DNA of 64,000 bases from Methanosarcina barkeri MS (GCF_000970025.1 NZ_CP009528.1:744001-808000), one strand, 5' to 3'. Positions 5,342 to 38,225 are shown, numbered from the stretch's first letter. Numbers and translations are program-made. Notes: generated from the sequence alone by a model not told the origin.

Positions 5342-6523
5342 TTATTTAACCCTGTAAGGGATCTTTGCGCCCTGAGGTATTGTATGAATATATTCTTTCC
5401 GAAAATCGGGGTTGCGCATCATGCAATATGCGGCATTATCTTTTTTGTAAGCTTTGTGCTTACCCATACGCTTCCAGATAACTTCCAGGGGTTCTTCACA
5501 GATATTTCCAAAGGATAGAGGAGTGTAAGCACAGGGCATTACTTCCCCATCCGAAGCAACATGCATCCATCGTCTTCCAGCAAAACACCCAAAAAGACTT
5601 GGGCCCAGAAAATACGGAAATGCGGTGACTCTGGGACCTTCAGGTTTAGAGTTCATTTTTTTCTGGAACTTCTCAAGCTTTGAGACATCTTTTTCCCCGA
5701 TTACTTCATCTTCGTGCTCAAGCCAGCGTCCGACGGCAATAATTTCATAGATGGAAAGTTCATGCATTCCAAGGTTAAATGCAAGGTTGTAAAATTCTTC
5801 AAGGTCATCGATATTGTGAGGGGAAACAACTACAAACATATCAGTAAGGATCCCGGCAGTGATTGAATTTTTGATTCCGGCGATTGAATCTTTGTATGCA
5901 CCTTCTCGGCCCCGAATGCGGTCGTGTTCGGCTTCAAATGGGCTGTCCAGACTAATTCTTGAGGCGTATAATCCTGCGGCTTTAAGCTCCTTAGCCCTTT
6001 CTTCGGAAAGCTTGAAACCTGAGGTGAGACAGGTAGCAATTGCTCTTGATTTATCGACTCTGGCTACCATCTCTACAAGATCGTCTCGAAGCATGGTCTC
6101 CCCTCCATCGAAAGCAATAAGATAAGACCCAAGATCCAGGCTCTGGTCTATAGCTCCGGAAATTTCATCCAGAGTAAGTTCCTTTTCTGGCTTGATACCA
6201 GCTGCTCCACAGTGGATACATCGGTTAGGACAGCGAGCCGTAATTCCTATTGAAAACTGATCCGGAACCCTTTTTTTCCGGATAGCTGCGATCTCAGCAC
6301 TTATCACCCGGCTGAAAACAGGCCCCGGAATTGGTGGGATCCATGTAGAGAAAATAATCTCATTTTCATCCACTGAAATGGGTTTTTCTTCCGCAAAAAT
6401 GTTGTTTATGCGTTTGAGGATAGGGTTTGCAAGATGGGAAAGAGGACCTTCTACATCAAGCACAATTTTTTCGTTTTCTGTACTGGCATTTACTTTAAGC
6501 ACCGGACTATCATATACTCGCAT
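5342..6523 (-). CDS. Radical SAM protein with SPASM-like C-terminus
   Basis: This enzyme (393 aa from the chosen start) should cleave S-adenosylmethionine at a [4Fe-4S] cluster. The cluster motif CPNRCIHC (CxxxCxxC) follows an N-terminal extension of about 90 residues. The usual GGE-type motif appears as FDGGETMLRDD. C-terminal cysteines in LFGCFAG, EVMPCAYTPL, GNICEE and AAYCMM suggest a SPASM or twitch auxiliary-cluster domain. I prefer the ATG at 6523, preceded by AGGTG, over a TTG 27 bp upstream. The substrate is unknown. Being next to a prenyl diphosphate synthase of the methanophenazine type makes a role in cofactor biosynthesis a fair but untested guess. Confidence 0.85.
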   Translation of the reverse strand: MRVYDSPVLKVNASTENEKIVLDVEGPLSHLANPILKRINNIFAEEKPISVDENEIIFSTWIPPIPGPVFSRVISAEIAAIRKKRVPDQFSIGITARCPNRCIHCGAAGIKPEKELTLDEISGAIDQSLDLGSYLIAFDGGETMLRDDLVEMVARVDKSRAIATCLTSGFKLSEERAKELKAAGLYASRISLDSPFEAEHDRIRGREGAYKDSIAGIKNSITAGILTDMFVVVSPHNIDDLEEFYNLAFNLGMHELSIYEIIAVGRWLEHEDEVIGEKDVSKLEKFQKKMNSKPEGPRVTAFPYFLGPSLFGCFAGRRWMHVASDGEVMPCAYTPLSFGNICEEPLEVIWKRMGKHKAYKKDNAAYCMMRNPDFRKEYIHTIPQGAKIPYRVK

Positions 6524-6676
6524 GGATACACCTGGTAAATTTGTTAGCAAAAGTTGGAAGACTTATTAAAAGTTAGAAAACTTATTGGATTAGATAAATT
6601 AAATAATGTTATTTTTCCATTTACATACCGGAAATTTGACAGTGTCGCAGTTCATTTTTCAGGAAAAGCTGAGCAA

Positions 6677-12017: not shown

Positions 12018-12183
12018 AAGACCTCAATTTAACTTCAAGACCTCAATTTAACTTCAAGACCTCAATTTAACTTCAGAACCTCAAATTTAACTTCATGAAC
12101 CTCAAATTTAACTTCAGAACCTCAAATTTAACTTCAAAGCCTCAAATTTAACTCAATAGTTTTATCGAATTTCAAGATCTCAA
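12018..12183 (-). repeat. Tandem 19-21-bp repeats carrying Shine-Dalgarno-like cores
   Basis: Seven to eight units of the type AACTTCAAGACCTCAATTT (plus strand) fill the gap between the ADP-ribosylglycohydrolase and the GIY-YIG gene, drifting from 19 to 21 bp. On the minus strand every unit contains TTGAGGT or TTGAGAT. The unit at the left edge supplies the ribosome-binding site of the GIY-YIG gene, and a degenerate unit on the right includes the stop codon of the preceding gene. Confidence 0.85.
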
Positions 12184-13139
12184 TTTATTCCTGAAAGCTG
12201 AAGATATTTTTCAAGTAGAGGCTCCACGATTTCCTCTATTTTTTCGTTCTCTTTAAGTGCCTCAATCCAGGAAATTGGTATGGCTTCAATTCCTAGCCTG
12301 GCTCCAAGAATACCTCCTGCCACGCTCGCAACCGAATCCGAATCTCCTGTGATATTCACTGCGGTCTGTACTGCTTTTTTGAAATCATTAGGATAACGTA
12401 ATATGCAGAAGTATGCCAGGGCAAAAGTTTCGTCTGCATACCAGCCCTGCCCGAGTTTCTTCAAACCTTCTTCGTCTCCGATATCACTATAAGCCGTTTT
12501 ATAGGAATTTTCCAGGGCCTGAGTGAATTCCGGAGAGATTCCCTGAGTTATCTCAAGAAGTGGTTCAAACATTTTCCTGGGTTTCACCCAATCAAGAGCC
12601 AATTTTACGGCGTATGCTCCTGCAACCGAGGCAGCATCTGCAGCTGGATGGGTGTGAGTAATTCTGCCGGAAATTGAAGCTGCTTTAATCAGTTTTTCAG
12701 GGTCGTTCCGGAAGACAAAACCAAGGATTCCAACCCGCATGAGGCTTCCGCATGTTTTTGAATTTAGTCCCGAATTGCTCCAGTGAATTCCTTCCTTCAG
12801 GCTCAGAGCTGCATTTTTTGTGGTTGCTCCTGCCCCGAGGTCAGGTTCGTCCAACCATAGGACAAGCTCTTTTGCAATCTTATCCATAAGTTTGGGAAGT
12901 TCAAGTTCTGCTCCTCTAAACAGACCTCTGGCGAGTACGAGCATTAACTGAGTATCATCAGTCCAGGGTGACTCTGGAGAAAGCTCGAGGATTCCTTTGT
13001 CGCCGTACTTCTGTTTTATTTGCTCAAGGGTAAGATGTTCTACCGGGCGGCCGAGGGCGTCTGCACATGCTGTGCCGTAGAGGTAGCCTCGGAGTTTTTT
13101 TTCGATATCTGAAGTATCTTGCGTGTTTCCTGAATTCAT
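12180..13139 (-). CDS. ADP-ribosylglycohydrolase family protein
   Basis: A soluble helical hydrolase of the DraG/ARH family that removes ADP-ribose from proteins or small molecules using two Mg ions. Family motifs are present: GYLYGTACADALGRPVE near the N-terminus, WTDDTQLMLVLA (metal-binding Thr-Asp-Asp), and GDSDSVASVAGGILGA (the second metal site) near the C-terminus. The length of 319 aa is normal. I prefer the ATG at 13139 over a TTG seven codons upstream. No partner ADP-ribosyltransferase gene is seen in the window. Confidence 0.9.
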   Translation of the reverse strand: MNSGNTQDTSDIEKKLRGYLYGTACADALGRPVEHLTLEQIKQKYGDKGILELSPESPWTDDTQLMLVLARGLFRGAELELPKLMDKIAKELVLWLDEPDLGAGATTKNAALSLKEGIHWSNSGLNSKTCGSLMRVGILGFVFRNDPEKLIKAASISGRITHTHPAADAASVAGAYAVKLALDWVKPRKMFEPLLEITQGISPEFTQALENSYKTAYSDIGDEEGLKKLGQGWYADETFALAYFCILRYPNDFKKAVQTAVNITGDSDSVASVAGGILGARLGIEAIPISWIEALKENEKIEEIVEPLLEKYLQLSGIN

Positions 13140-13570
13140 GGTTTCAATTCCATAATTCAAACGAGAAATGAAACTATCATGTGTATAAAGATTTTATCTA
13201 TATAGGATTGAATTAATACATTATGTTGAACTGTTGTTTTATTGGAGGTGTAAATTCCAAATTTTGAATGTATAAGTAGATTCTATTATTTCTAGGAGCT
13301 TTATAGAAAACCTGCCTTTAACTTAAGGTGCTTTAATTGCGTATTATTTATTAGAAACTAAATTCAGCAGAATGATCTAGTGTAGTGTCAATTACAAAAT
13401 GTCGTATTAAATCGATTGCAATTATTCGGGGTCATTAAATCCTTGATGGTTGACTCGACACTAGTATTTCGATTCCAAAGTGAATTCCTTATTTATTGAG
13501 AAAATCCATGATTATTGAACAGATCAAAAACCCAAGTTTTATAAGCCAACTCGGAACCATAGTCATAGCA
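13140..13570. other. Intergenic region with one MITE-like element
   Basis: An AT-rich gap between two minus-strand genes. Apart from the short inverted-repeat element at 13377-13464 and a presumed promoter for the ADP-ribosylglycohydrolase gene, nothing is recognisable. Confidence 0.5.
13377..13464. mobile_element. 88-bp MITE-like element with terminal inverted repeats
   Basis: The left end CTAGTGTAGTGTCAA and the reverse complement of the right end CTAGTGTCGAGTCAA match at 12 of 15 positions and bound an 88-bp stretch. It has no coding capacity. The terminal repeats suggest a non-autonomous transposon remnant, but no parent element is visible here. Confidence 0.4.
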
Positions 13571-15220
13571 TTATTTAAGAGGAATTTTCTCCAATAAAGG
13601 TTCGTGTGTATGACCCATTACATAAATTCTCTTGTTTTTCTGTAGACACAGGCGAGCAGCATACTGAGTGCAGATATGTCTCCGGGAAGGAAGTCCAAAT
13701 ATCAAACATTCTAAATCTCGGAGAGGCTCTTCCAAATTTCTTGACTCGGGATGATGGAATCCAAATAGAGCAGCTGCCCAACCGATTATAGCATTTGGAT
13801 CTTCATTAAATACATCACTTTGATGACCATGTTCCGCCCAAACTCCTGTTGATTCAAAGTGATCTGAAACTTTTTCATGCTTCCATAAAGGTGTCATCCT
13901 GTAACTATCATGGTTTCCATAGATGAATCGGGTGTTAAGGTCTTCTGTTTCATTGACGAGCAAATTGATTGCCTTACTTGTGTATTCTGATGTTTCAGTC
14001 AGGGTCTCGTTTCTCCAGAACTCCAAAAAACTCTGAGCTGCAGGATCTGAATACATTTTTTGTGGGTCTATAGTATTGAACGCTCTTTTTAAACCAAGCC
14101 AGAAGTCGTAGAGATCTCCTAACTGAACAAGCGTTGCTAATATTGATCCTTGCTTCTGATAATCCTTTAGCAAATTTATAAATTCATATAAATCTCTCCC
14201 AGCGTTCTGGAAAATATCTGCACCTTTCTTATTTCCATCTCCATGATATAGATTGAACCAATAATATGCATTATTTCCTGTGATTTCCTTATTTTCATCC
14301 CATTCATTGAGATTCTGAGGGTCCAGTAGTACTTCCAATATCATTTTCAACATTACTATGATATGCACGTTATTCAATTTGATATTCTGACTGTTGTCCA
14401 AACTATTAAGCTGCTGGGGTTCGAAGGAGTTTTCGATGCTTTTATCCATTAATTGCATTATTTTTCTTCCCTCTAACGATTCTCCAAAGATTTTTTTCAC
14501 AATATCTTTTATTTTTTTAATATCTGTTACCGATCTAAGCTCTTTGACTTCAGTGAGAAATGAAACCACATTTTTCTCGTTCTCTCCATTTTTCGTAATA
14601 ATCTCATCATTGATATCAAGTCTCCCACGAGGCCATGCCCATGTAATGTCAATTGGGTTCGTATCTTGAAGGTATGTTCTATTACAACAGTTCATAATTG
14701 GGGCATGAATATCACCCAAAAAAACGAGAATCTCGTCAGAACACGGCGCTTCAGTTATTCCATCAGCACAAACCAAAGCATTTACAACAGTCACAGGTCC
14801 TAAACTAGTAGATTCTGAAAGTTTGTCAAGCAATGGTATCAGTACCTTAGCTTCTGGAGAATTTAGCACTTCTTCGCTTATCTTCCCCAGATAACGGTTT
14901 ATTGAGGAGTTAGGATTTTCATAGTTACAGAGAATTGCAACGGAGCCACATACAAGTCCAAAATTACGTCTTCTAGTCCATGCGTCCCCGGTGTCTTTAT
15001 CCCCTCCCCACCTTCCTACATCCATGTAAAGGAATTGATTAGTCTCTTTGTTTCTAGTTACTACACATTCTTTCTGATCTGTGGAATCAAACAATTCTGC
15101 AGTCATCTTTCCGGGTTGTAAATCCGAATTATGCTTGATAATCTTCACATTATCATTATGCCTTATAGTTTTACAGTTAGTTCCTAATGGAAATGTGTAG
15201 TTTGCTTCACCTGCGCTCAT
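13571..15220 (-). CDS. Calcineurin-like metallophosphoesterase next to the peptide locus
   Basis: A 549-aa predicted metallophosphoesterase. All signature blocks are present in order: LGDIHAP, LGDLYDFW, YGNHDSY, EHGHQSD and MGHTHEP, the last only eight residues from the C-terminus. The first 170 residues before GDIHAP are of unknown type, and a long charged insertion separates the first two motifs. The ATG at 15220 follows AAGGAGG with a 10-bp spacing; an upstream TTG is less likely. It is downstream of, and on the same strand as, the protease and precursor-like peptides, so it may belong to the same transcription unit. Its substrate is unknown. Confidence 0.75.
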   Translation of the reverse strand: MSAGEANYTFPLGTNCKTIRHNDNVKIIKHNSDLQPGKMTAELFDSTDQKECVVTRNKETNQFLYMDVGRWGGDKDTGDAWTRRRNFGLVCGSVAILCNYENPNSSINRYLGKISEEVLNSPEAKVLIPLLDKLSESTSLGPVTVVNALVCADGITEAPCSDEILVFLGDIHAPIMNCCNRTYLQDTNPIDITWAWPRGRLDINDEIITKNGENEKNVVSFLTEVKELRSVTDIKKIKDIVKKIFGESLEGRKIMQLMDKSIENSFEPQQLNSLDNSQNIKLNNVHIIVMLKMILEVLLDPQNLNEWDENKEITGNNAYYWFNLYHGDGNKKGADIFQNAGRDLYEFINLLKDYQKQGSILATLVQLGDLYDFWLGLKRAFNTIDPQKMYSDPAAQSFLEFWRNETLTETSEYTSKAINLLVNETEDLNTRFIYGNHDSYRMTPLWKHEKVSDHFESTGVWAEHGHQSDVFNEDPNAIIGWAAALFGFHHPESRNLEEPLRDLECLIFGLPSRRHICTQYAARLCLQKNKRIYVMGHTHEPLLEKIPLK

Positions 15221-15598
15221 ATACAGTGTTCCTCCTTGATTGATTAAGTCTAGCAAAAAGTAAATTCAGTCGGTTAAACATTTAGGATCCTTATTCAATG
15301 ACTTTGAAACAGGGACAATTTTTGTTAAGTCAAACTTACTCTGTTCAACAATTTAACATTGGCCCTTTTTATTAACTGGCACGTCCATAATTCACGAAAA
15401 AAGATAGGTTTTCAAGCTAAAATTCGAATTAAAGAGCTTCCGTTATCTAGTTCTAATTTTTGGCTGCCGTAAAGTAGCCACATTTTGGGCTGCTAAAAAG
15501 TGAGGGTTTGGAAAACTTGTAACCAGAAAGGTTGCAACTATCCATTACCTTTAAGCGGTTTATTTTATATCTCTTAAAATAGAATCGGCTATCTGAAG
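15221..15598. other. Spacer with a degenerate copy of the peptide-gene flank
   Basis: The part from about 15437 to 15598 (TTTGGCTGCCGTAAAGTAGCC ... CTATCCATTACCTTTAAGCGG) is a weathered copy of the sequences found upstream of peptides 1 and 2 (TTCTGGCAGCCATGAGGAGCC ... CTATCCATCACCT). A further unit of the duplication may therefore have been lost here. No gene is seen. Confidence 0.5.
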
Positions 15599-15789
15599 TT
15601 AAATACATTGTGGGCAGTTGCTTACAGCACATAAAATAGCACCAGGGATATTACCTGTAGCTAGATTTACTGCACATGTGCACATTTAGTGAGTAAACAT
15701 CCAATGTTAACAGAGGAGTTTACTCCTGCCTCGATTCTTGCGGTACTAATATTTCTCATAACAGGTTTTGCCTGAATTGGTATTCTCAT
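15599..15789 (-). pseudogene. Precursor-like peptide 1 (frameshifted copy of peptide 2)
   Basis: The start MRIPIQAKPVMRNISTARIE follows AAGGAGG. As it stands the frame ends after 40 residues (LLTKCAHVQ). Restoring one base near 15676, by comparison with peptide 2 (CACATGTGCAC here, CACATGGTGCAC there), restores a 63-residue peptide ending CAVSNCPQCI. The region before the first core cysteine is virtually identical to peptide 2, while the core differs. It may be a recent loss of function, a different short product, or a sequencing error. Confidence 0.65.
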
Positions 15790-16190
15790 AACAATTTCCT
15801 CCTTAGTTCTAACTTCTGGCAGCCATGAGGAGCCCATATTTGGGATGTCCAAAAAAAGGGTATTTGGATAGATTGCAATCGGAAAGGTCGAAACTATCCA
15901 TCACCTCAAAGCAGTCTATTTCATTCGATTTTAGGATGAAATCATCCATCTTAAAATTAAAAACACTGTGGGCAGTTGCTTATAGCACAGGTAGCAGCAC
16001 CAGCGAAGTCACCTGAAATTACTTTTGCTGCACATGGTGCACATTTAGTGAGTAAACATCCAATGTTAACAGAGGAGTTTACTCCTGCCTCGATTCTTGC
16101 GGTACTAATATTTCTCATAACAGGTTTTGCCTGAATTGGTATTCTCATAACAATTTCCTCCTTAGTTCTAACTTCTGGCAGCCATGAGGA
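15672..16190 (-). repeat. Direct duplication of the peptide leader and upstream flank
   Basis: About 160 bp at 15672-15832 and 16028-16190 are almost base-for-base identical, covering the ribosome-binding site, leader codons and upstream flank. The sequences encoding the cores and the outer flanks are only loosely similar. This marks a recent tandem duplication in which leader and core have diverged at different rates, or gene conversion limited to the leader. Confidence 0.85.
15957..16148 (-). CDS. Precursor-like peptide 2 (63 aa, Cys-rich core)
   Basis: A 63-residue peptide with a strong Shine-Dalgarno (AAGGAGG, 8 bp before ATG). The N-terminal half MRIPIQAKPVMRNISTARIE, then AGVNSS, is a leader-like segment shared with the two neighbouring peptides. 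The C-terminal half holds six cysteines in the order C31, C36, C39, C54, C59, C62 (GCLLTKCAPCAA ... TCAISNCPQCF). It lies downstream of a cyanobactin-type protease on the same strand. Inference: a ribosomal precursor whose leader is removed by that protease. No known bacteriocin class is recognised. Confidence 0.7.
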   Translation of the reverse strand: MRIPIQAKPVMRNISTARIEAGVNSSVNIGCLLTKCAPCAAKVISGDFAGAATCAISNCPQCF

Positions 16191-16418
16191 GCCCATACTT
16201 TTGGTTACCCAAAATGAGTATTTGGATAGATTCAACGAGACAGCCAAAGCTATCCATCACCTCTAAACAGCCTTTTCCACATATTTTTCCAATAACCAGT
16301 GGCGGGGATTCATGCTAAAAAGTACGAACATCTACCGCTCACTTCGATTGCATTAGGACTATCCACAAGTACAGATCATTATTCTGTAAATCTTATGGCT
16401 GACCTATCATGCAAGTCA

Positions 16419-16589
16419 TTAAGTTGTGACTGCACTTTCCTTAATATTACACATATTCATGCAGAGCTTCCACGCAAGCCCTTGTTTTTTGGAGCATAGA
16501 GCAGAGCAATCAGATTGACTTATTCCTGCCTTGATCTTCACAGTACTGATCTTTCTCATAACAGGTTTAGCTAGTACTGGTAGTTTCAT
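16419..16589 (-). CDS. Precursor-like peptide 3 (56 aa, diverged core)
   Basis: The ATG at 16589 follows GGAGG with 7-bp spacing and gives MKLPVLAKPVMRKISTVKIK, the same leader pattern as peptides 1 and 2 (M-R/K-I/L-P-I/V-x-A-K-P-V-M-R-N/K-I-S-T). The core is different: SQSDCSALCSKKQGLAWKLC and then MNMCNIKESAVTT, with four cysteines. A longer reading frame upstream overlaps the protease end and lacks a ribosome-binding site, so it is not used here. It is the peptide gene closest to the protease stop (190 bp). Confidence 0.65.
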   Translation of the reverse strand: MKLPVLAKPVMRKISTVKIKAGISQSDCSALCSKKQGLAWKLCMNMCNIKESAVTT

Positions 16590-16779
16590 CGTAGTTTCCT
16601 CCATATTCTTTTCGTTGATTTTTCCATAAATTGAGCTGTTTTGTCGCCATATCTGTGAATATTTAAAATAATCTGTTCCTAAATTATCACTCTCCTCGTC
16701 ATTTACAACTATTGTAATATAATGGGTGCCATCCAAGGTGACGAAATTCTTGGATGGCACATAAACAAATAGTTTCGAT

Positions 16780-18921
16780 TTAGTATATCGACCAAGAACG
16801 TAAATCCCCAATTGAAACCGGTACCACGTCACTAACATCGATAGTAAAGCGGTACACCATTCTTGCGACTTCTTCACGATGGAGAGGATCAAAAAATGTC
16901 AGCTTAACATCCCAGCAATCCGAATCTGGTCTGCAAATAGGGCTTTTTTCTGTTTGAATGGTATCCAGCACCATTCCTTTTTCAATCGCATTCTTAAAAA
17001 CATCCGCAATCTGATACGCATTTGTTGCAGCAAAGTTAAGTGCTCTCTCCGATGAAGCCCTGCCCATATTCATCAACTCATAATACACACGCTCCATGAA
17101 GTTACGAATATCAGTTCCCTCCTTATCGGAAAGGTTGAGCACGGCTCTTAAATCTTCAATCAGAACTTTTGTAGACCAGCTAAATATCCCCCTCAATTGC
17201 GGTATAATAACCGGAACTATCTGACCTGAAAGGAGTGTTACATTACCTGCAATAACTCCTGGAATCGAAATCCTTTCAATCGATCCTTCCTGGTAGTCTT
17301 TCAGAAATTCCAGTAACTGCCGGTAAGCTTCGGAGGCAAAACTGCCCGTCGGATGGATTGCATAAACGGGAGTACCCTCAATGTTAAGGGTCCATATGAG
17401 TGACTCAGCATATTCGGGTTTTTTCTCTAAAAGTTCAAACAGCTTCCCTTCAAATGTGGGCGGTTCATCTTTAGGGTTCTTGTGGTGCACAAATCCTTGG
17501 ATAAAAGCATCTCGTCTCGCTTCACTTCCAAAGTCGTAGCCTGGTACACCAAGAGCATATACTAGAGACCGTCTACTCACAGCCTGTGGCGAAGGAGTCT
17601 GCGCAGGCGTGACAGAAGGTTTAGCTACCTCCTGGTTTGTTATTGTTGGTTCTGCCACTTGTACTTCAGATGCAAGAACCTGAGACACAGTTATATCATT
17701 TTTCTGCTCATCAAGTTCGTTCGTTTCTTCTATCTTCTTCTTTCTTGGACAACCACATGGTCCTTCTATATTTTCAGTCATTTTATCCTCCTGTATCTGG
17801 TTTTTCGCTTGATTGTTTTCTATTGATAGTTCAATAGAATCAGGATTTTCCAGCGCCTTCATCGCGTCCAGGGTAGAAATCTGAGTAGAAGACGCTACTA
17901 TCTCTGGATTTAATATTGTAAATTCCGAATTCTGCACGCCAAGAAAAGGCAGATTTTTTGAAGATTCCACCAGTCCTATGCCCTCACTCTCCTGAATTTG
18001 TGGTATTGAATTAGTACTATCAGTTGCCGCCTTTTGTTGTTTTTTCGTTACAAGGTTATATGCACCTTCAATGTTGAGACGACCTCTTAAGCAACGAGAA
18101 CGATCTAAAACTTCAGAAGGTAAACAAGGGTGAGCACTCTGGAGAATCGCTTCCTTCACAGCATGCGGATCAGGTTTTTCTCCTCTTTGCTTCTGGATGC
18201 TCAACAGCAAAGCAGCAATACCAGTAACTATAGGAGTGGCAAAGCTGGTTCCACTTTTAGTGTCAACTCCACAAGTTTTGGTGACAACTTCGCAAGGGAC
18301 GGCACCCGGTAATTTATCACCAAGTGCGAGAACACCATTATTTTGATACATCTGTCCCCAATTGCTAAAGTTAAGTGGCAGTCCCTGAACATCCATTGCC
18401 CCTACTGCAAGAGTAGAAGAAACGGATGCTGGCACATGGAGGCACGAGCAGCCGTCATTTCCCACAGCCGCAACGATTAAAACATTGCTTTTGTCGCAGA
18501 GACGAATAGCCTTAGCAAGTAGAGGGTGAGGTTCACCAGAAGAAACCAGTTCACCGCCACTAATGTTTATAACATGAGCTCCGTGGTCAACGGCTTGTGT
18601 GATGGCGTGAGCGAGATCGATCTGAGAGCAGGGTGTAATTGAATCACCAGGTCCATCCGCAAAAACAGGAATGATGAGTCCACGACAGCCGGGTGAAATC
18701 CCACGGACAGGACTGTCAGGTTGGCCAAAGATTAAGCTGGCAACATGAGTTCCGTGTTGTGCACTTGGTCCATTCTCGGCAATGCCTGAAACTAAAGTTT
18801 CTAATTTAGTTATTTTGGCTTTGTTGAAACATGGATGTGTTAGGTCGACTGGCCCATCAAGGACTGCAATGCAAATATTGGCATTTCCTTTAATTTGCTC
18901 TATAATCTCTATTGCCTTCAC
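16780..18921 (-). CDS. Cyanobactin-type (PatA/PatG-like) subtilisin maturation protease
   Basis: A 713-aa subtilase with the look of cyanobactin maturation proteases. The S8 domain spans residues 15-290: catalytic Asp22 (IAVLDGPVDLTHPCF), His57 (QHGTHVAS), oxyanion Asn155 (AAVGNDGCSC) and Ser226 (SGTSFATP). A low-complexity linker (about 295-450) contains GPCGCPRKKK. The C-terminal part (452-713; ALGVPGYDFGSEARRDAF, DSDCWDVKLTFFDP, IDVSDVVPVSIGDLRSW) matches the domain that follows the protease in PatA/PatG-type proteins as I know them. There is no signal peptide, so it acts in the cytosol. The GTG start follows AGGCGG. Precursor-like peptides lie directly downstream. No YcaO or ThiF enzyme is seen. 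Confidence 0.8.
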   Translation of the reverse strand: MKAIEIIEQIKGNANICIAVLDGPVDLTHPCFNKAKITKLETLVSGIAENGPSAQHGTHVASLIFGQPDSPVRGISPGCRGLIIPVFADGPGDSITPCSQIDLAHAITQAVDHGAHVINISGGELVSSGEPHPLLAKAIRLCDKSNVLIVAAVGNDGCSCLHVPASVSSTLAVGAMDVQGLPLNFSNWGQMYQNNGVLALGDKLPGAVPCEVVTKTCGVDTKSGTSFATPIVTGIAALLLSIQKQRGEKPDPHAVKEAILQSAHPCLPSEVLDRSRCLRGRLNIEGAYNLVTKKQQKAATDSTNSIPQIQESEGIGLVESSKNLPFLGVQNSEFTILNPEIVASSTQISTLDAMKALENPDSIELSIENNQAKNQIQEDKMTENIEGPCGCPRKKKIEETNELDEQKNDITVSQVLASEVQVAEPTITNQEVAKPSVTPAQTPSPQAVSRRSLVYALGVPGYDFGSEARRDAFIQGFVHHKNPKDEPPTFEGKLFELLEKKPEYAESLIWTLNIEGTPVYAIHPTGSFASEAYRQLLEFLKDYQEGSIERISIPGVIAGNVTLLSGQIVPVIIPQLRGIFSWSTKVLIEDLRAVLNLSDKEGTDIRNFMERVYYELMNMGRASSERALNFAATNAYQIADVFKNAIEKGMVLDTIQTEKSPICRPDSDCWDVKLTFFDPLHREEVARMVYRFTIDVSDVVPVSIGDLRSWSIY

Positions 18922-19249
18922 AATAACCGCCTACAATTTTTACATTGACTGTGAAAGTCTCATAGCAATTTTTTGCTGTGAATTAAGCTAGAATAGAATA
19001 CGCAGGCAAAAATAGGTAATCCAGATAACATATGTGCATAGTGCGCATAATTCATTAGATATAGGATGGAAAAATGTACAAAATTTGGTTCCACAGTAAG
19101 CATTTGCGGGAAACTGATCTAAAATAGAATACTCACAAAAAAATAAATTACCCAGATAACATATGCATAATATGTGCATAACTCATATTATATCTGTATT
19201 GAAATATTAATAAATTATATAAGATGTTTGAAGTCCGGGGTGAAATATT
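18922..19249. other. Divergent promoter region with duplicated segment
   Basis: The protease gene and the plus-strand gene at 19250 diverge from this 328-bp gap. Two related segments (CCAGATAACATATGTGCATA near 19020 and CCCAGATAACATATGCATAA near 19150), about 130 bp apart, contain similar AT-rich motifs and GCATAACTCAT-like blocks. They could be a duplicated operator or promoter; nothing more can be said. Confidence 0.5.
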
Positions 19250-19816
19250 TTGAAAACACACCGAATTTCAACCACAATCTCGCAGAGACACTGGGAATTA
19301 CTAAAAAAATACTCAGAAAAATTTGAAACGCAGCAAAAAACCTTAGAACTTGCACTGGATAATCTGGAAAATAGCTCAAAAAAGGGTCCAGCGTTAACCT
19401 TGGAAGAGAAGTACTGGATGCTCATTAAACGGGCAAAATCAGCAGTTATCATCGAAAAAAATGCCTTTAAATTCCTAATAGAAACCACTGATGTTGAGCT
19501 TTTAAGTGAGCTTTTCAGCCGAGATAAAATCATAGAATATACAATAGAGCTCTACTTTCAGAAGTCTCTTGAGGAGTGTAGTCTTAAAGAAGTCATAGAT
19601 GGGTTAGTTATCAATCTCAAGATAACTAACTGGTTTGATACTGTAGATTACATAAATAACGGTGACGATTATAAGCTGATAATGACCCATACATTTGGTT
19701 TTATTTTTTCCAAGCTAATTAGGACATCGATAGAAAACATGTTTGAAACTTATGGGGTGAAGGCAGATAGCATAGTTTCTGTAAAGACGATTTTTATGAG
19801 AATATCTAAAAATTGA
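19250..19816 (+). CDS. Unknown protein with a possible ribbon-helix-helix N-terminus
   Basis: A 188-aa soluble protein that I cannot assign. The first 40 residues (HRISTTISQRHWELLKKYSE ... LELALDNLE) follow the pattern of a short strand and two helices seen in ribbon-helix-helix DNA-binding proteins. The remainder is helical with no recognised motif (FKFLIETTDVELLSELFSRD, IMTHTFGFIFSKL). The TTG start is preceded by GGGGTG. It is divergently oriented from the cyanobactin-type protease, so a regulatory link is possible but unproven. Confidence 0.6.
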   Translation: MKTHRISTTISQRHWELLKKYSEKFETQQKTLELALDNLENSSKKGPALTLEEKYWMLIKRAKSAVIIEKNAFKFLIETTDVELLSELFSRDKIIEYTIELYFQKSLEECSLKEVIDGLVINLKITNWFDTVDYINNGDDYKLIMTHTFGFIFSKLIRTSIENMFETYGVKADSIVSVKTIFMRISKN

Positions 19817-33998: not shown

Positions 33999-36900
33999 TC
34001 AATCAATTTCTTTTTCATGAATCTTACTAAATTTCCCATTCGAATATAAATAGTGGGAAATCTTTTGGACAAGATTGGAATGCGTCTTATTCATAGAATA
34101 TATCAATTTTTCTTGGAGAACTACGAAAATAATATCCATTTCTATTTTGTTTAATAAATGTACTAATTTATCTTCCCTTATTATTAAGCCTCTACACGTT
34201 TTATTTTTTATGTTAATTATTATTTCCTCATTTGAACTGTCCACCCAACTGCTGTCTCCATCCCATTTGAGGTTTAGTTTACTTATGAACATTGGCAAAG
34301 GAAATTCTATTGTCTCAGAACGTTCGTCATTTGAAAAGTCATATTCAAAGCTTTGTTCTCTAAGCATACTTATCTCATTTGAGTATGCAGTTGTCGTATT
34401 AGGTAAAATCTCAGTAAGTTCTAAGTACAGATCTCCATATAATAAATCTTGTTGGACAGCTTCACTATAAGGATACTCTGCTAAATAAATAGAGTGACTA
34501 TGTTGATTGAAAGATGAAGTGTATATTTCGAATTGATCCTTCATTTCCTTAATGCCTTTCCGATAATGTTTTGTTTCTTTTTTAGGAACTAATATCGATC
34601 TTATGACAGTAGTAACCTTTCTATTGAAACCGGTGAGTTTTTCAGATTGAGTTGGGTTCTTTTCTTTATTTTCCTTAGAAAGTGATAAATTAATCCACTG
34701 TCTGTTTTCGTTATCAAATGCTTTTATTGCTTTATATACACTTGGTAGGTCAAGAGTTTTTATCCACTCCTCTGGAGAAATGTCTTTTACGGTTGAAAAA
34801 TTATAATCAACAGGATTCCACCAATCATGCGAACCTACTTTTTTGAAAATACTATATCTTAAATCAGTTGGATCCATTGTGTAGTGCCTTATGCCAAGAC
34901 TCTGCAATCTGTTGGATTTTTTGCTTACGGGATCACTGTAGTATTTAATGTAATCTAAATTATCTGACAGAATACCAATTAATCTGTAGAATAAAATCCA
35001 ATAATACTTTTTTCCTAATCTCTCCGCCCAACTGGGTTTACTCCGCCCTCCTCCATATTTGGATCTCAGATACATATCATACATATAACATTTTGAATTA
35101 TACCCAGGATAACCCATTTCTTTAACGGAGTACAAAAACCAATTATAAATATCATTTTTAGTAATATTAAGTGATTTTAAATCAAAATTATAAAATACTC
35201 TTTCTACAATGTAATGAGCAAAATCTGTTCCAAATCCATAGCTTCCCAAATACATTTCTGGAATATTGGAGAACTCTTCACAAGAAATTATTTCATCAAC
35301 TATTTCCTGTTTAGGGATTTCTAAAGGCCAAATACTTTCATAAGGTGGCCTAAATACATTTATATCTGCGTTATCAGGTAATTTTTCCATGTTATTTGCA
35401 AATTCAAGTATCAATCTTAGATTGTCTCTGATAAGTGCGTTGCAGGGAATCTTCTTATAAAGAAATAAATTGTATACTGTTTGTGCAATCTCTTTTAAGG
35501 AATCGAAAAACCCTAATTTCAAGATAGCTCCGTACGCTGCTAACGTAACTCTCTCTAAGATGTATTCATCATCAACCGAATTGAATTTGCTTATTATGGG
35601 AGTAATTATCTGTGGATTAGTTATAAAAAGTCGAGTCAATCCTAAAGTAGACTGATCTCTAATTCTTCTGTCAGAAGATGCACAAAACCATGAGAGAATT
35701 ATTGCCCATAGCGTTAAAGACTCAATATTAATGTGTTCTAAATTAGCGTTTTTAGCCCAGTATATAAGACGATAAACATTTTGCTTAAGCTCATAGTTTT
35801 CGTGAATATTAAAATTCCAGAATGGGTCTCTTGTCGTTAAATTAAGCCTTTCCAAAAAATTGTGTAGGAATTCTCCATTTAATAAGCAGTCGCTTCTGGT
35901 AGATGTGGCTAATAATGAGTCAATTAAAACTGCATTATTAAAATTTTTACGTAATTGACTTAAAACAAGATATCTGGTCTTATCAAAAAATGCTTTGGAA
36001 CTTCTCCACTCAAAACTTCTAAATATTGCATTGTAAATGTCATCTTCAAAACTTGAATTATTTATATCGATGAGCTCTGTTAGTTCTACATTATAGTTCT
36101 CAGGAATAATGATTGAACAAGCCTCTAGCAAACCCAATCTAATATTTTCCGTGCAATTACTATTAAGTATAAAATATAATGGATTTCCTTCATTAAATGA
36201 ATCTCGAACTAATGATTTATCTAAATCTTTTATTGCTTCTCTTACAATAAGGAAATCCTGAATCCTTTCAAATGTGAATCTAACGTTATATTCAGGTAAA
36301 CCATCCTCATTAAGCATTGATGGTATTACAGATACTAAATTCTCCTTTTCTAATTGAATAAATAATGAGTCAGTATAACCAGATCTTGGTAGTATATTAT
36401 TTACAATTCTCTTTGCTTCATCTAGTTTGATATAATTTGAAGAGCTTTGACCAATTGATTTTGCTAAAGCAAATAATGCTTTATTTATTATGTTGTCACG
36501 AGGATCACAGTCAATTGCAGATGAAATTACTTTATTTTTCTTTTTAAGGAACGAGTTCATTATAGTTAAAAAACCCTGTTGACCCAATGGTAATGAAGAT
36601 GGTTCTTTGTCTTTTAAAGTACTACAAACCAAGTGTAAAAATAGAGGATTTGTAAACTCTTTCTGCAACAAAGGTGATGTAGGATGTTCAATTTTGTAGT
36701 AATTAAAAAACTCAGTAATCGCCTCAAATTCGCACTCAGAAAAACCATTATGGTCAATCTGTGGAATTGAATTTATATCGTTAAAAATCTCAGTTATATA
36801 AGTGTCACGACAAGAAACACAAAGAAGTATCTTTGGATATGGTTTTAATTGTTCACATATTAATGGGAACCATCTTTTCCATTTTTTGTGATCCTTAGAT

Positions 36901-38225
36901 TCATTTAGTGCATCTATATAAATTAGTATTGGCTCTTGCGTTTCTGCGGATGCTATAGATAGACATTCCAAGAACTCATCTCTAGAGAGGTTGCCGGATA
37001 ATCCCAATTTTTTACTTATCGTGGTCCATGGATCGTCATGATCGAAGTCTTCCCCATAAAAAACTAGACTAATTGCCCCACGATCTTTTCGACTTAAAGC
37101 GTGATCAATAATTAGATGTGTCTTTCCAATTCCTGCAGGACCTTTTAAAAGGACAGTTTTTGAAAATGATAGTTTTATTTTATTTGATGTCAAAAGTGAC
37201 AGAAGTTCTTTAAGACAAAGAATCATATCACGAGTTGAATCTAGATGTTCAGCAGGAAAAGTGGCCATATATTCTGTCATGTATTGGCGGTAACTAGGAG
37301 TATCTACCCCGCCTTTCGTCTTAAACTCTTCGAAGACTAACGATTCATAATTTTGAAATCTATCGAGTAAATTTAGTAGTTTTTCAGATATATCTGTATT
37401 TATTTCTTGATTCCAATCATCTGTATAAATCTTGGTTAGTGTTTCAATAACTTCATCTAGACCGCTTTTTATTTCGTCATAAGGTGTTGATATTTTTTCT
37501 TTTGTGGTTTCCTTTAGATTATATGAACGATTCCAATTATCCACTTTTTCATTTATTGTTAAATTGATTTGCTTATTTTTATCTACCATTACTTTAGGAT
37601 TTGAGAATATTTCTAGTTCCTCAAAAGAAGGGACACTTATTGACAGCTGTGGAGTGTACCGGTCTCCAGCTTGTGCTTTTGCCTCATTAATTCTTTGCTC
37701 AAACCACCCATTTGGGAATATTTCTTTATTAAACCAGTAATTTTTTAATCCATTGTTAGTATCGAGTTCTATTATATAATCTAGAAGTTTACTTTTATTC
37801 CATAAATACACTTTAAAACTAAACTTCAATTCTACTTTCTTTGTTTCCAACCAACTTTCAAATTTTTCTAGTTCTCCTATCCCTTTACTTGTGTTAGTAG
37901 TTAAATTAAATGGAATGCATACAACATAGCAGGTTAAATTAGGATGTATTGTAGTAGCAGATCCTAGAGATTTCGTGAGTTGTTTAATTAATGCTGCATA
38001 TGTAAAAATATACTTACATTGTATACCTATTTCTTTCTCATCAGTTAATTTCCAATATGCTTCAACTCCCCCATCACCCCCAGCACCTCTATTACGATTA
38101 TATGTAATTAAGTCAGATCTAAGAGCTTTAATTTTCCTATAAAATATCTCGCAACATAACTCTTCAAATGAATCCTCTTTATTTCCCATTCGAGGACAAA
38201 TGTCTTTAAACTCGATTTCTAGCAT
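33999..38225 (-). CDS. Nuclease-STAND NTPase, Avs-like candidate antiviral protein
   Basis: A 1408-aa multidomain protein. Residues 15-150 look like a PD-(D/E)xK nuclease of the Mrr/Cap4 sort, with GGDGGVEAYW (Asp51, Glu55) and IGIQCKY (Gln69, Lys71). A STAND-type NTPase follows: Walker A LLKGPAGIGKTH at about 359-370 and Walker B PILIYIDALNES at about 432-443. The remaining 900 residues are helical without a repeat I can name, where Avs proteins carry their target-sensing region. Avs (AVAST) proteins recognise phage proteins and activate an N-terminal nuclease; the resemblance is architectural, judged by eye. The gene is AT-rich like its surroundings and lies between two inverted 72-bp repeats. 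Confidence 0.75.
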   Translation of the reverse strand: MLEIEFKDICPRMGNKEDSFEELCCEIFYRKIKALRSDLITYNRNRGAGGDGGVEAYWKLTDEKEIGIQCKYIFTYAALIKQLTKSLGSATTIHPNLTCYVVCIPFNLTTNTSKGIGELEKFESWLETKKVELKFSFKVYLWNKSKLLDYIIELDTNNGLKNYWFNKEIFPNGWFEQRINEAKAQAGDRYTPQLSISVPSFEELEIFSNPKVMVDKNKQINLTINEKVDNWNRSYNLKETTKEKISTPYDEIKSGLDEVIETLTKIYTDDWNQEINTDISEKLLNLLDRFQNYESLVFEEFKTKGGVDTPSYRQYMTEYMATFPAEHLDSTRDMILCLKELLSLLTSNKIKLSFSKTVLLKGPAGIGKTHLIIDHALSRKDRGAISLVFYGEDFDHDDPWTTISKKLGLSGNLSRDEFLECLSIASAETQEPILIYIDALNESKDHKKWKRWFPLICEQLKPYPKILLCVSCRDTYITEIFNDINSIPQIDHNGFSECEFEAITEFFNYYKIEHPTSPLLQKEFTNPLFLHLVCSTLKDKEPSSLPLGQQGFLTIMNSFLKKKNKVISSAIDCDPRDNIINKALFALAKSIGQSSSNYIKLDEAKRIVNNILPRSGYTDSLFIQLEKENLVSVIPSMLNEDGLPEYNVRFTFERIQDFLIVREAIKDLDKSLVRDSFNEGNPLYFILNSNCTENIRLGLLEACSIIIPENYNVELTELIDINNSSFEDDIYNAIFRSFEWRSSKAFFDKTRYLVLSQLRKNFNNAVLIDSLLATSTRSDCLLNGEFLHNFLERLNLTTRDPFWNFNIHENYELKQNVYRLIYWAKNANLEHINIESLTLWAIILSWFCASSDRRIRDQSTLGLTRLFITNPQIITPIISKFNSVDDEYILERVTLAAYGAILKLGFFDSLKEIAQTVYNLFLYKKIPCNALIRDNLRLILEFANNMEKLPDNADINVFRPPYESIWPLEIPKQEIVDEIISCEEFSNIPEMYLGSYGFGTDFAHYIVERVFYNFDLKSLNITKNDIYNWFLYSVKEMGYPGYNSKCYMYDMYLRSKYGGGRSKPSWAERLGKKYYWILFYRLIGILSDNLDYIKYYSDPVSKKSNRLQSLGIRHYTMDPTDLRYSIFKKVGSHDWWNPVDYNFSTVKDISPEEWIKTLDLPSVYKAIKAFDNENRQWINLSLSKENKEKNPTQSEKLTGFNRKVTTVIRSILVPKKETKHYRKGIKEMKDQFEIYTSSFNQHSHSIYLAEYPYSEAVQQDLLYGDLYLELTEILPNTTTAYSNEISMLREQSFEYDFSNDERSETIEFPLPMFISKLNLKWDGDSSWVDSSNEEIIINIKNKTCRGLIIREDKLVHLLNKIEMDIIFVVLQEKLIYSMNKTHSNLVQKISHYLYSNGKFSKIHEKEID

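What the first reader, a model, noticed from the sequence alone, without database searches (positions are those of the whole stretch)
15599..18921. Cyanobactin-like protease with three leader-sharing precursor peptides in a methanogen
A subtilase with the full Asp-His-Ser set plus the C-terminal domain typical of cyanobactin PatA/PatG proteins is followed on the same strand by three short genes with strong Shine-Dalgarno sites. All share a leader of the form M-R/K-I/L-P-x-x-A-K-P-V-M-R-x-I-S-T, and all have cysteine-bearing C-termini that differ. This is the organisation of a ribosomal-peptide locus (one processing enzyme, several precursors with constant leader and variable core). I know of no described archaeal cyanobactin-type pathway, and the leader matches no class I recognise. 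No YcaO, ThiF or prenyltransferase gene is visible, so the modification chemistry, if any, would be new or encoded elsewhere.
Basis: partly seen in the sequence, partly recalled or inferred. Interest (0 to 1): 0.9.

Follow-up and report, generated by a model that had tools for sequence, protein, structure and literature searches.

The report
Cyanobactin-type peptide processing in a methanogen
A methane-producing archaeon carries the leader-cutting protease of a cyanobacterial peptide-antibiotic pathway next to small peptide genes with that pathway's leader and cut site, but none of its chemistry enzymes; similar stripped-down pairs occur across many bacterial phyla.

Summary
16780-18921(-) is a genuine PatA-type protease (TIGR03895, 679 bits against a cut-off of 421; Pfam S8 + PatG_D + PatG_C). 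It is followed by three tandem precursor units, but the third is frameshifted and gives only 40 aa. LPxQxxPVxR is the N-terminal motif of cyanobactin precursors, and the next conserved element, G[VIL]xxS, matches the PatA cleavage site G(L/V)E(A/P)S, just before the variable Cys-bearing core. A leader model built from bacterial peptides alone picks out all six methanogen peptides (this genome and one congener). The same protease-plus-leader pair occurs in cyanobacteria, actinobacteria, proteobacteria and Bacteroidota (20/33 PatA-type loci against 0/80 ordinary subtilase loci). Among 112 Methanosarcinaceae genomes only two have the protease, and only those two have the peptides. No macrocyclase, macrocyclisation tail, YcaO or prenyltransferase belongs to the locus. 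Best reading: PatA removes a cyanobactin-type leader from small Cys-rich peptides, releasing linear, probably disulfide-bonded products. It is a PatA-only variant, not a full cyanobactin pathway, and it bears on two open questions: what the leader motif and the PatA/PatG C-terminal domain do.

The parts
16780..18921 (-). PatA-type protease, 713 aa: S8 subtilase domain (residues ~10-290), long disordered linker (~296-450), PatG_D + PatG_C domain (~452-712). Catalytic D22/H56/S226. Asp-His spacing 34; matches PatA rather than PatG.
   Evidence: TIGR03895 679 bits, cut-off 421; Pfam S8/PatG_D/PatG_C; PatA/PagA chains 302-330 bits vs PatG macrocyclase chains 167-171 bits; fold match PagA TMt 0.93-0.95, PatA 0.91-0.92, PatG-DUF 4uvq 0.85; dN/dS 0.28 vs G077 copy
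16419..16589 (-). Precursor peptide 1, 56 aa: leader MKLPVLAKPVMRKISTVKIKAGISQS, then core DCSALCSKKQGLAWKLCMNMCNIKESAVTT with a twin CX3C motif
   Evidence: ORF and RBS; leader HMM; core motif shared with bacterial peptides; AF2 gives two helices 25-32 and 38-54, modest pLDDT
15957..16148 (-). Precursor peptide 2, 63 aa: leader MRIPIQAKPVMRNISTARIEAGVNSS, then a 37-aa core rich in Cys
15667..15789 (-). Precursor peptide 3, leader identical to pep2 but one base short relative to it; as read, 40 aa ending CLLTKCAHVQ. The shifted remainder runs to 15599.
15448..16163 (-). Two tandem ~357-bp cassettes (pep3, pep2); part of the unit recurs at 16247-16279 beside pep1 (start-to-start spacings 356, 358, 359)
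19250..19816 (+). 188-aa protein, divergent from the protease; a flank, not part of the system (present in 18 of 112 family genomes, most without the protease)
12180..13160 (-). ADP-ribosylglycohydrolase, the conserved flank on the other side of the variable site

Best explanation
The locus is a minimal, PatA-only peptide maturation unit of the cyanobactin family, kept at a variable chromosomal site in two Methanosarcina species. The cytosolic protease recognises the leader through LPxQxxPVxR and cuts after the G[VIL]xxS motif, as PatA does after G(L/V)E(A/P)S. It thereby frees 30-37 residue cores rich in cysteine. With no PatG macrocyclase or follower sequence, the product should be linear. 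With no tailoring enzyme at the locus, the likeliest maturation is disulfide (or metal) bonding through the cysteines; the CX3C...CX3C cores would form a two-helix hairpin. The probable use is as a released antimicrobial or signalling peptide whose core diversifies by tandem duplication. Shown by computation: protease family, leader family, cleavage motif, co-occurrence, absence of partner enzymes. Inferred: cleavage itself, linear product, disulfides, export, biological role.
For: Protease. Leader: a model from bacterial peptides only finds all six methanogen peptides and nothing else below E 0.05. Leave-one-locus-out models hit 20/33 PatA-type loci and 0/80 control loci, Fisher p 7e-14, and also recover real cyanobactin precursors (L051; sequences over the TIGR04446 cut-off show LPKQAAPVAR...GIVAS). 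Cleavage site: PatA-like enzymes cut after G(L/V)E(A/P)S (PMC10885120); the same position is G[VILA]xxS in nearly all rows of A2. Co-occurrence in 112 family genomes: 2 with both, 110 with neither. No cyanobactin tailoring at the locus: the only YcaO lies 0.58 Mb away and no LynF/TruF prenyltransferase is found. Purifying selection, with dS like the flanking genes, argues for a working, vertically kept gene. Core motif shared with Hyphomicrobiales, Mesorhizobium, Flavilitoribacter, Oscillatoria and Streptomyces.
Against: No cleavage, product or expression data. One precursor is frameshifted here and one is start-less with an in-frame TAG in G077, so the system may be decaying. No exporter or immunity gene is visible. 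Seed peptides for the leader model were first picked near such proteases, so leave-one-out is not fully blind (the methanogen and control tests are). The protease has no signal peptide by eye, so disulfides need export or another oxidant. AF2 confidence for the core is modest (mean pLDDT 66). PatG's C-terminal domain did not bind PatE' in published NMR (PMC4259220), against that domain reading the leader.
Confidence: 0.7

Rival explanations
1. A true modified RiPP whose tailoring enzyme is encoded elsewhere in the genome and acts in trans; the protease only finishes the job.
For: Cores are Cys/Ser/Thr rich; G000 encodes one YcaO and radical SAM/SPASM proteins (e.g. 5342-6550, although its best models are heme-type enzymes).
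Against: A YcaO is found in the Methanosarcina acetivorans control and in G077 too, fitting the MCR thioamidation enzyme of PMC5589413; YcaO is absent from several whole genomes that have the pair (G450, G451, G452, G456, G458, G459, G467). No recurrent enzyme flanks the pair in bacteria.
Confidence: 0.14
2. The peptides are not secreted products but partners of the protease: substrate-like regulators or pro-regions, the whole being an intracellular stress or conflict system.
For: Sporadic distribution, variable genomic site, no exporter; NB-ARC/STAND genes near some bacterial copies; in other archaea the PatG_D/PatG_C domain alone is paired with a Cys-rich peptide.
Against: Constant leader, specific cut motif and diversifying core are the marks of precursors; related precursors over the NCBIfam cut-off are known cyanobactin substrates.
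Confidence: 0.09
3. A non-functional, horizontally acquired remnant.
For: One decayed precursor in each genome; absent from 110 of 112 relatives.
Against: The protease is intact in both species after dS about 0.67, dN/dS 0.28; two intact precursors each; leader under constraint (dN/dS 0.15-0.21, few sites).
Confidence: 0.05
4. A canonical cyanobactin pathway making a macrocycle.
For: Protease and leader belong to that family.
Against: No PatG-type protease in the genome (the only other hit is an ordinary subtilase at 55 bits), no AYDG/FAGDDAE-like tail on any peptide, no YcaO at the locus, no prenyltransferase. The macrocycle type outside cyanobacteria looks different: Nonomuraea L063 has repeated GVEQS-core-FAG cassettes plus a second protease.
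Confidence: 0.02

Closest known systems
PatA / PagA N-terminal proteases of cyanobactin pathways
   Same: Domain order S8 + PatG_D + PatG_C, catalytic triad, no macrocyclisation insert by score and spacing, about 53% identity over the protease domain to the solved PatA/PagA structures
   Different: Host is an archaeon; stands alone, without PatD, PatF or PatG
Cyanobactin precursors (TIGR03678, TIGR04446, NF042906; PatE/PirE type)
   Same: LPxQxxPVxR near the N-terminus and a G[VIL]xxS site before the core
   Different: Methanogen peptides score below every cut-off (window peptides: no hit at E<=1); no AYDG/FAGDDAE follower; longer Cys-rich cores
PatB/AcyB/McaB (TIGR04220), cyanobactin cluster proteins of unknown role
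   Same: Begin MRLPKLAPPVKR, the same motif; a PatB-like peptide occurs in a stand-alone locus (L048, E 4.7e-4)
   Different: PatB has a conserved body and no clear G[VIL]xxS site
Twin-CX3C disulfide helical hairpins such as plant alpha-hairpinins
   Same: CX3C-Xn-CX3C spacing and predicted helix-turn-helix; resemblance from memory
   Different: No PDB sequence match; homology not claimed

Membership tests
PatA/PatG cyanobactin maturation protease (TIGR03895) | Score above curated cut-off over full length | tested here: met
   679 vs 421 bits, model 1-605/606
PatA/PatG cyanobactin maturation protease (TIGR03895) | PatA rather than PatG subtype (no macrocyclisation insert) | tested here: met
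   PatA/PagA chains 302-330 bits vs PatG 167-171; Asp22-His56 spacing 34, one residue more in the PatA alignments; PatG fold match lower and with more gaps
Cyanobactin biosynthetic pathway | Precursor with LPxQxxPVxR-type leader | tested here: met
Cyanobactin biosynthetic pathway | N-terminal protease site G(L/V)E(A/P)S | tested here: met
   Relaxed form G[VIL]xxS in all methanogen peptides; consensus from PMC10885120. Cleavage itself not tested
Cyanobactin biosynthetic pathway | C-terminal AYDG/FAGDDAE recognition sequence | tested here: not met
   Absent from all peptides
Cyanobactin biosynthetic pathway | PatG-type macrocyclase | tested here: not met
   One TIGR03895 hit above cut-off in the genome
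Cyanobactin biosynthetic pathway | YcaO heterocyclase and/or TruF/LynF prenyltransferase in the cluster | tested here: not met
RiPP (leader-removed, modified peptide) | Processed and modified peptide product | not testable with these tools
   Needs mass spectrometry
Curated cyanobactin precursor families (TIGR03678, TIGR04446, NF042906) | Score above cut-off | tested here: not met
   Window peptides no hit at E<=1; a G077 peptide (entered with its second residue as R instead of K) 17 bits vs 75 for NF042906

The most novel reading that the evidence does not exclude
The LPxQxxPVxR leader and the PatG_D/PatG_C domain are two halves of an old, cross-domain peptide-handling system of which cyanobactins are one specialised branch. 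The PatA-only form (Methanosarcina and many bacteria) releases unmodified Cys-stapled mini-proteins, and in another archaeal family the domain alone is paired one-to-one with hypervariable Cys-rich peptides. The 'domain of unknown function' would then be a peptide-binding or folding module.
Probability: 0.35. Interest if true: 0.85.

Novelty: new variant of a known kind. Interest (0 to 1): 0.72.

Why it matters
If true, archaea have cyanobactin-type leader processing, and the core of that pathway (PatA plus leader motif plus cut site) exists free of heterocyclase, prenyltransferase and macrocyclase. That isolates what LPxQxxPVxR and the C-terminal PatA/PatG domain do, a question left open since the domain's structure was solved (PMC4259220), in a two-component system small enough to test in a tube. 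It also suggests that PatB, of unknown role, belongs to the same leader family, and it defines a searchable class of small Cys-rich peptides across several phyla and in methanogens.

Tried and rejected
Single-protein scan of genome contigs found nothing because the patterns were taken from variable stretches; an alignment query worked. NCBIfam and Pfam do not recognise the window peptides. Divergent 188-aa gene as a dedicated regulator: rejected, it occurs in 18 genomes, most without the protease. Downstream metallophosphoesterase 13571-15256 as a partner: not at the G077 locus, so not supported. Recurrent tailoring enzyme or exporter beside bacterial copies: none found. Leader motif on large neighbouring proteins: none. 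A model built from four canonical cyanobactin leaders alone is too weak to find the window peptides; the link runs through the bacterial stand-alone peptides and the motif itself. PDB sequence search with the core alignment: no real match. Pyrrolysine reading of the TAG in the third G077 peptide: not pursued, the start codon is lost too. No prior description found in six of the paper searches, which cover only open-licence papers.

Full report
What is there. On the minus strand of the window lie a 713-aa protease (16780-18921) and, downstream, three short peptide genes. The protease is not merely PatG-like: it passes the curated cut-off for PatA/PatG proteases (679 vs 421 bits), has Pfam S8, PatG_D and PatG_C domains, and is nearest to the N-terminal protease subtype among solved structures (PagA/PatA chains 302-330 bits, PatG macrocyclases 167-171 bits). 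A predicted structure built from an alignment of relatives (mean pLDDT 73, both folded parts mostly above 70, linker 296-450 disordered) superposes on PagA (TMt 0.93-0.95), PatA and the PatG domain of unknown function (0.85), and less well on the PatG macrocyclase.

The peptides. pep1 (16419-16589) and pep2 (15957-16148) are intact with strong ribosome-binding sites. pep2 and pep3 lie in tandem ~357-bp units, and part of the unit recurs beside pep1. Between paralogues leaders are more alike than cores (pep1/pep2 58% vs 30%; pep2/pep3 100% vs 65% with the pep3 core taken across its two frames).

Relatives in archaea. Of 112 genomes of the family only two carry a protease above the cut-off: this one (G000) and G077 of the same genus. 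A peptide profile search of the same 112 genomes finds real matches only in those two (next best E 0.027). At the G077 locus the protease (70% identical) is followed by two intact precursors and one decayed copy. The cassette sits between an ADP-ribosylglycohydrolase and a 188-aa gene; in G078 and G094 the same flanks enclose other genes, so the site is variable. The synonymous distance of the protease is like that of the flanks and dN/dS is 0.28: it was inherited, and kept, since the two species split.

Relatives in bacteria. tblastn against plasmids and an alignment-based scan of 84,980 species genomes brought in cyanobacterial, actinobacterial, proteobacterial, planctomycete and Bacteroidota proteases with the same architecture. 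Many stand alone and are followed at once by short genes with the same leader. The alignment of 17 such peptides shows invariant P4, P9, R12, near-invariant Q6, V10 and G22, and a G[VILA]xxS motif just before the core. Precursors above the cyanobactin cut-off show the same two elements (LPKQAAPVAR...GIVAS...FAGDDAE). PatA-like enzymes are reported to cut after G(L/V)E(A/P)S (PMC10885120).

Tests against chance. A leader model from 14 bacterial peptides, no archaeal sequence included, ranks the six methanogen peptides first among all six-frame ORFs of the window and the G077 locus (E 1e-8 to 0.03; next 0.71). Leave-one-locus-out models find the leader in 20 of 33 PatA-type loci, all within about 6.3 kb of the protease and most within 2.5 kb, and in 0 of 80 loci around ordinary subtilases (Fisher p 7e-14). 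The seeds were first chosen near such proteases, so this is not fully blind for bacteria; the methanogen and control results are.

What is missing. The genome has no second PatG-type protease. Its only YcaO is 0.58 Mb away, and YcaO also rings in the M. acetivorans control; it is most likely the MCR thioamidation enzyme of PMC5589413. No TruF/LynF prenyltransferase is found. No peptide has an AYDG-like tail. Several whole bacterial genomes with the pair have no YcaO at all, and no enzyme or exporter recurs beside it. So the pathway is not a cyanobactin pathway in full; the protease step and the leader are.

Cores. Some cores are related across phyla: pep1 and the G077 peptides share CX3C...CX3C with Hyphomicrobiales, Mesorhizobium and Flavilitoribacter peptides and half of it with Oscillatoria and Streptomyces. 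AF2 gives a disordered leader and two helices bearing the cysteine pairs, at modest confidence. Other stand-alone cores are Cys-free and look amphipathic (L048, L055, L061). Linear, disulfide-bonded products are the simplest reading for the methanogen; this is inference.

Evolution. In a tree of 31 proteases the six canonical PatA sequences are separated from the archaeal pair, five of them form one clade, and all lie inside a wider set of stand-alone proteins; the methanogen pair (100/100) is nearest by path to Gloeocapsa and Oscillatoria stand-alone proteins. The root is a midpoint and several branches are long, so 'stand-alone first' is only suggested.

The C-terminal domain. Its role in PatA/PatG is unknown; PatG's own domain did not bind PatE' in NMR (PMC4259220). 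Two observations bear on it. The minimal system keeps this domain, the LPxQxxPVxR motif and the cut site, and drops the rest. And in another archaeal family, twelve PatG_D/PatG_C-type genes (seven in G430, one each in G502, G473, G472, G479, G392; the G392 copy is cut by the contig end) without a protease domain are each followed within about 30 bp by a small Cys-rich hypervariable peptide (both domains confirmed for two by Pfam). A peptide-binding or folding role is a testable guess, not a result.

Limits. Nothing here shows transcription, cleavage or a product. The library of papers is open-licence only, so absence of a description is weak evidence.

Noticed in passing
L136 3963-4958, 10330-11250, 13078-14010, 15762-16682 (+); L137 5217-6128, 8708-9619, 12322-13233 (-); also L186, L187, L188, L189, L128: In a different archaeal family (G430 and five relatives) ~305-aa PatG_D/PatG_C-type proteins without a protease domain are each followed within ~30 bp by an RBS-bearing, hypervariable Cys/aromatic-rich 39-71 aa peptide (12 of 12 examined). 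[quoted passage not shown]
   Followed up: partly
L063 7634 onward and L072 7708 onward: Nonomuraea and Microtetraspora carry precursors with the same leader plus GVEQS/GAEQS sites (in Nonomuraea repeated GVEQS-core-FAG cassettes) and a second protease: a cyanobactin-like macrocycle arrangement in actinobacteria.
   Followed up: partly
L038 12541-12756; L048 11882 onward: PatB/AcyB/McaB proteins begin with the same MRLPxLxPPVKR motif, and a PatB-like peptide sits in a stand-alone locus, suggesting PatB belongs to the same leader family.
   Followed up: partly
L139 162-437 and 730-1605: G190 contig start: a PatG_C fragment, then a Cys-rich peptide beginning MKKEIKMPGFTAEAS, then a short PatA-like subtilase; a different leader type.
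   Followed up: no
window 33999-38225: 1408-aa protein with a partial but strong match to the anti-phage protein Avs2 (661.7 bits, below the 1000-bit cut-off).
   Followed up: no
window 18990-19190: Two similar AT-rich direct repeats upstream of the 188-aa gene, partly conserved upstream of the same gene in G078 and G094; possibly its operator.
   Followed up: no
L041 5316-6965, L048 5966-6535, L043 6659-8089: M35-type metallo-endopeptidases (the L043 one by motif only) recur near PatA-type proteases in Streptomyces plasmids and Oscillatoria.
   Followed up: no
L034 8912-9093: Third peptide copy in G077 has lost its start codon, carries an in-frame TAG at the conserved Gln position and a small duplication in the leader.
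   Followed up: partly
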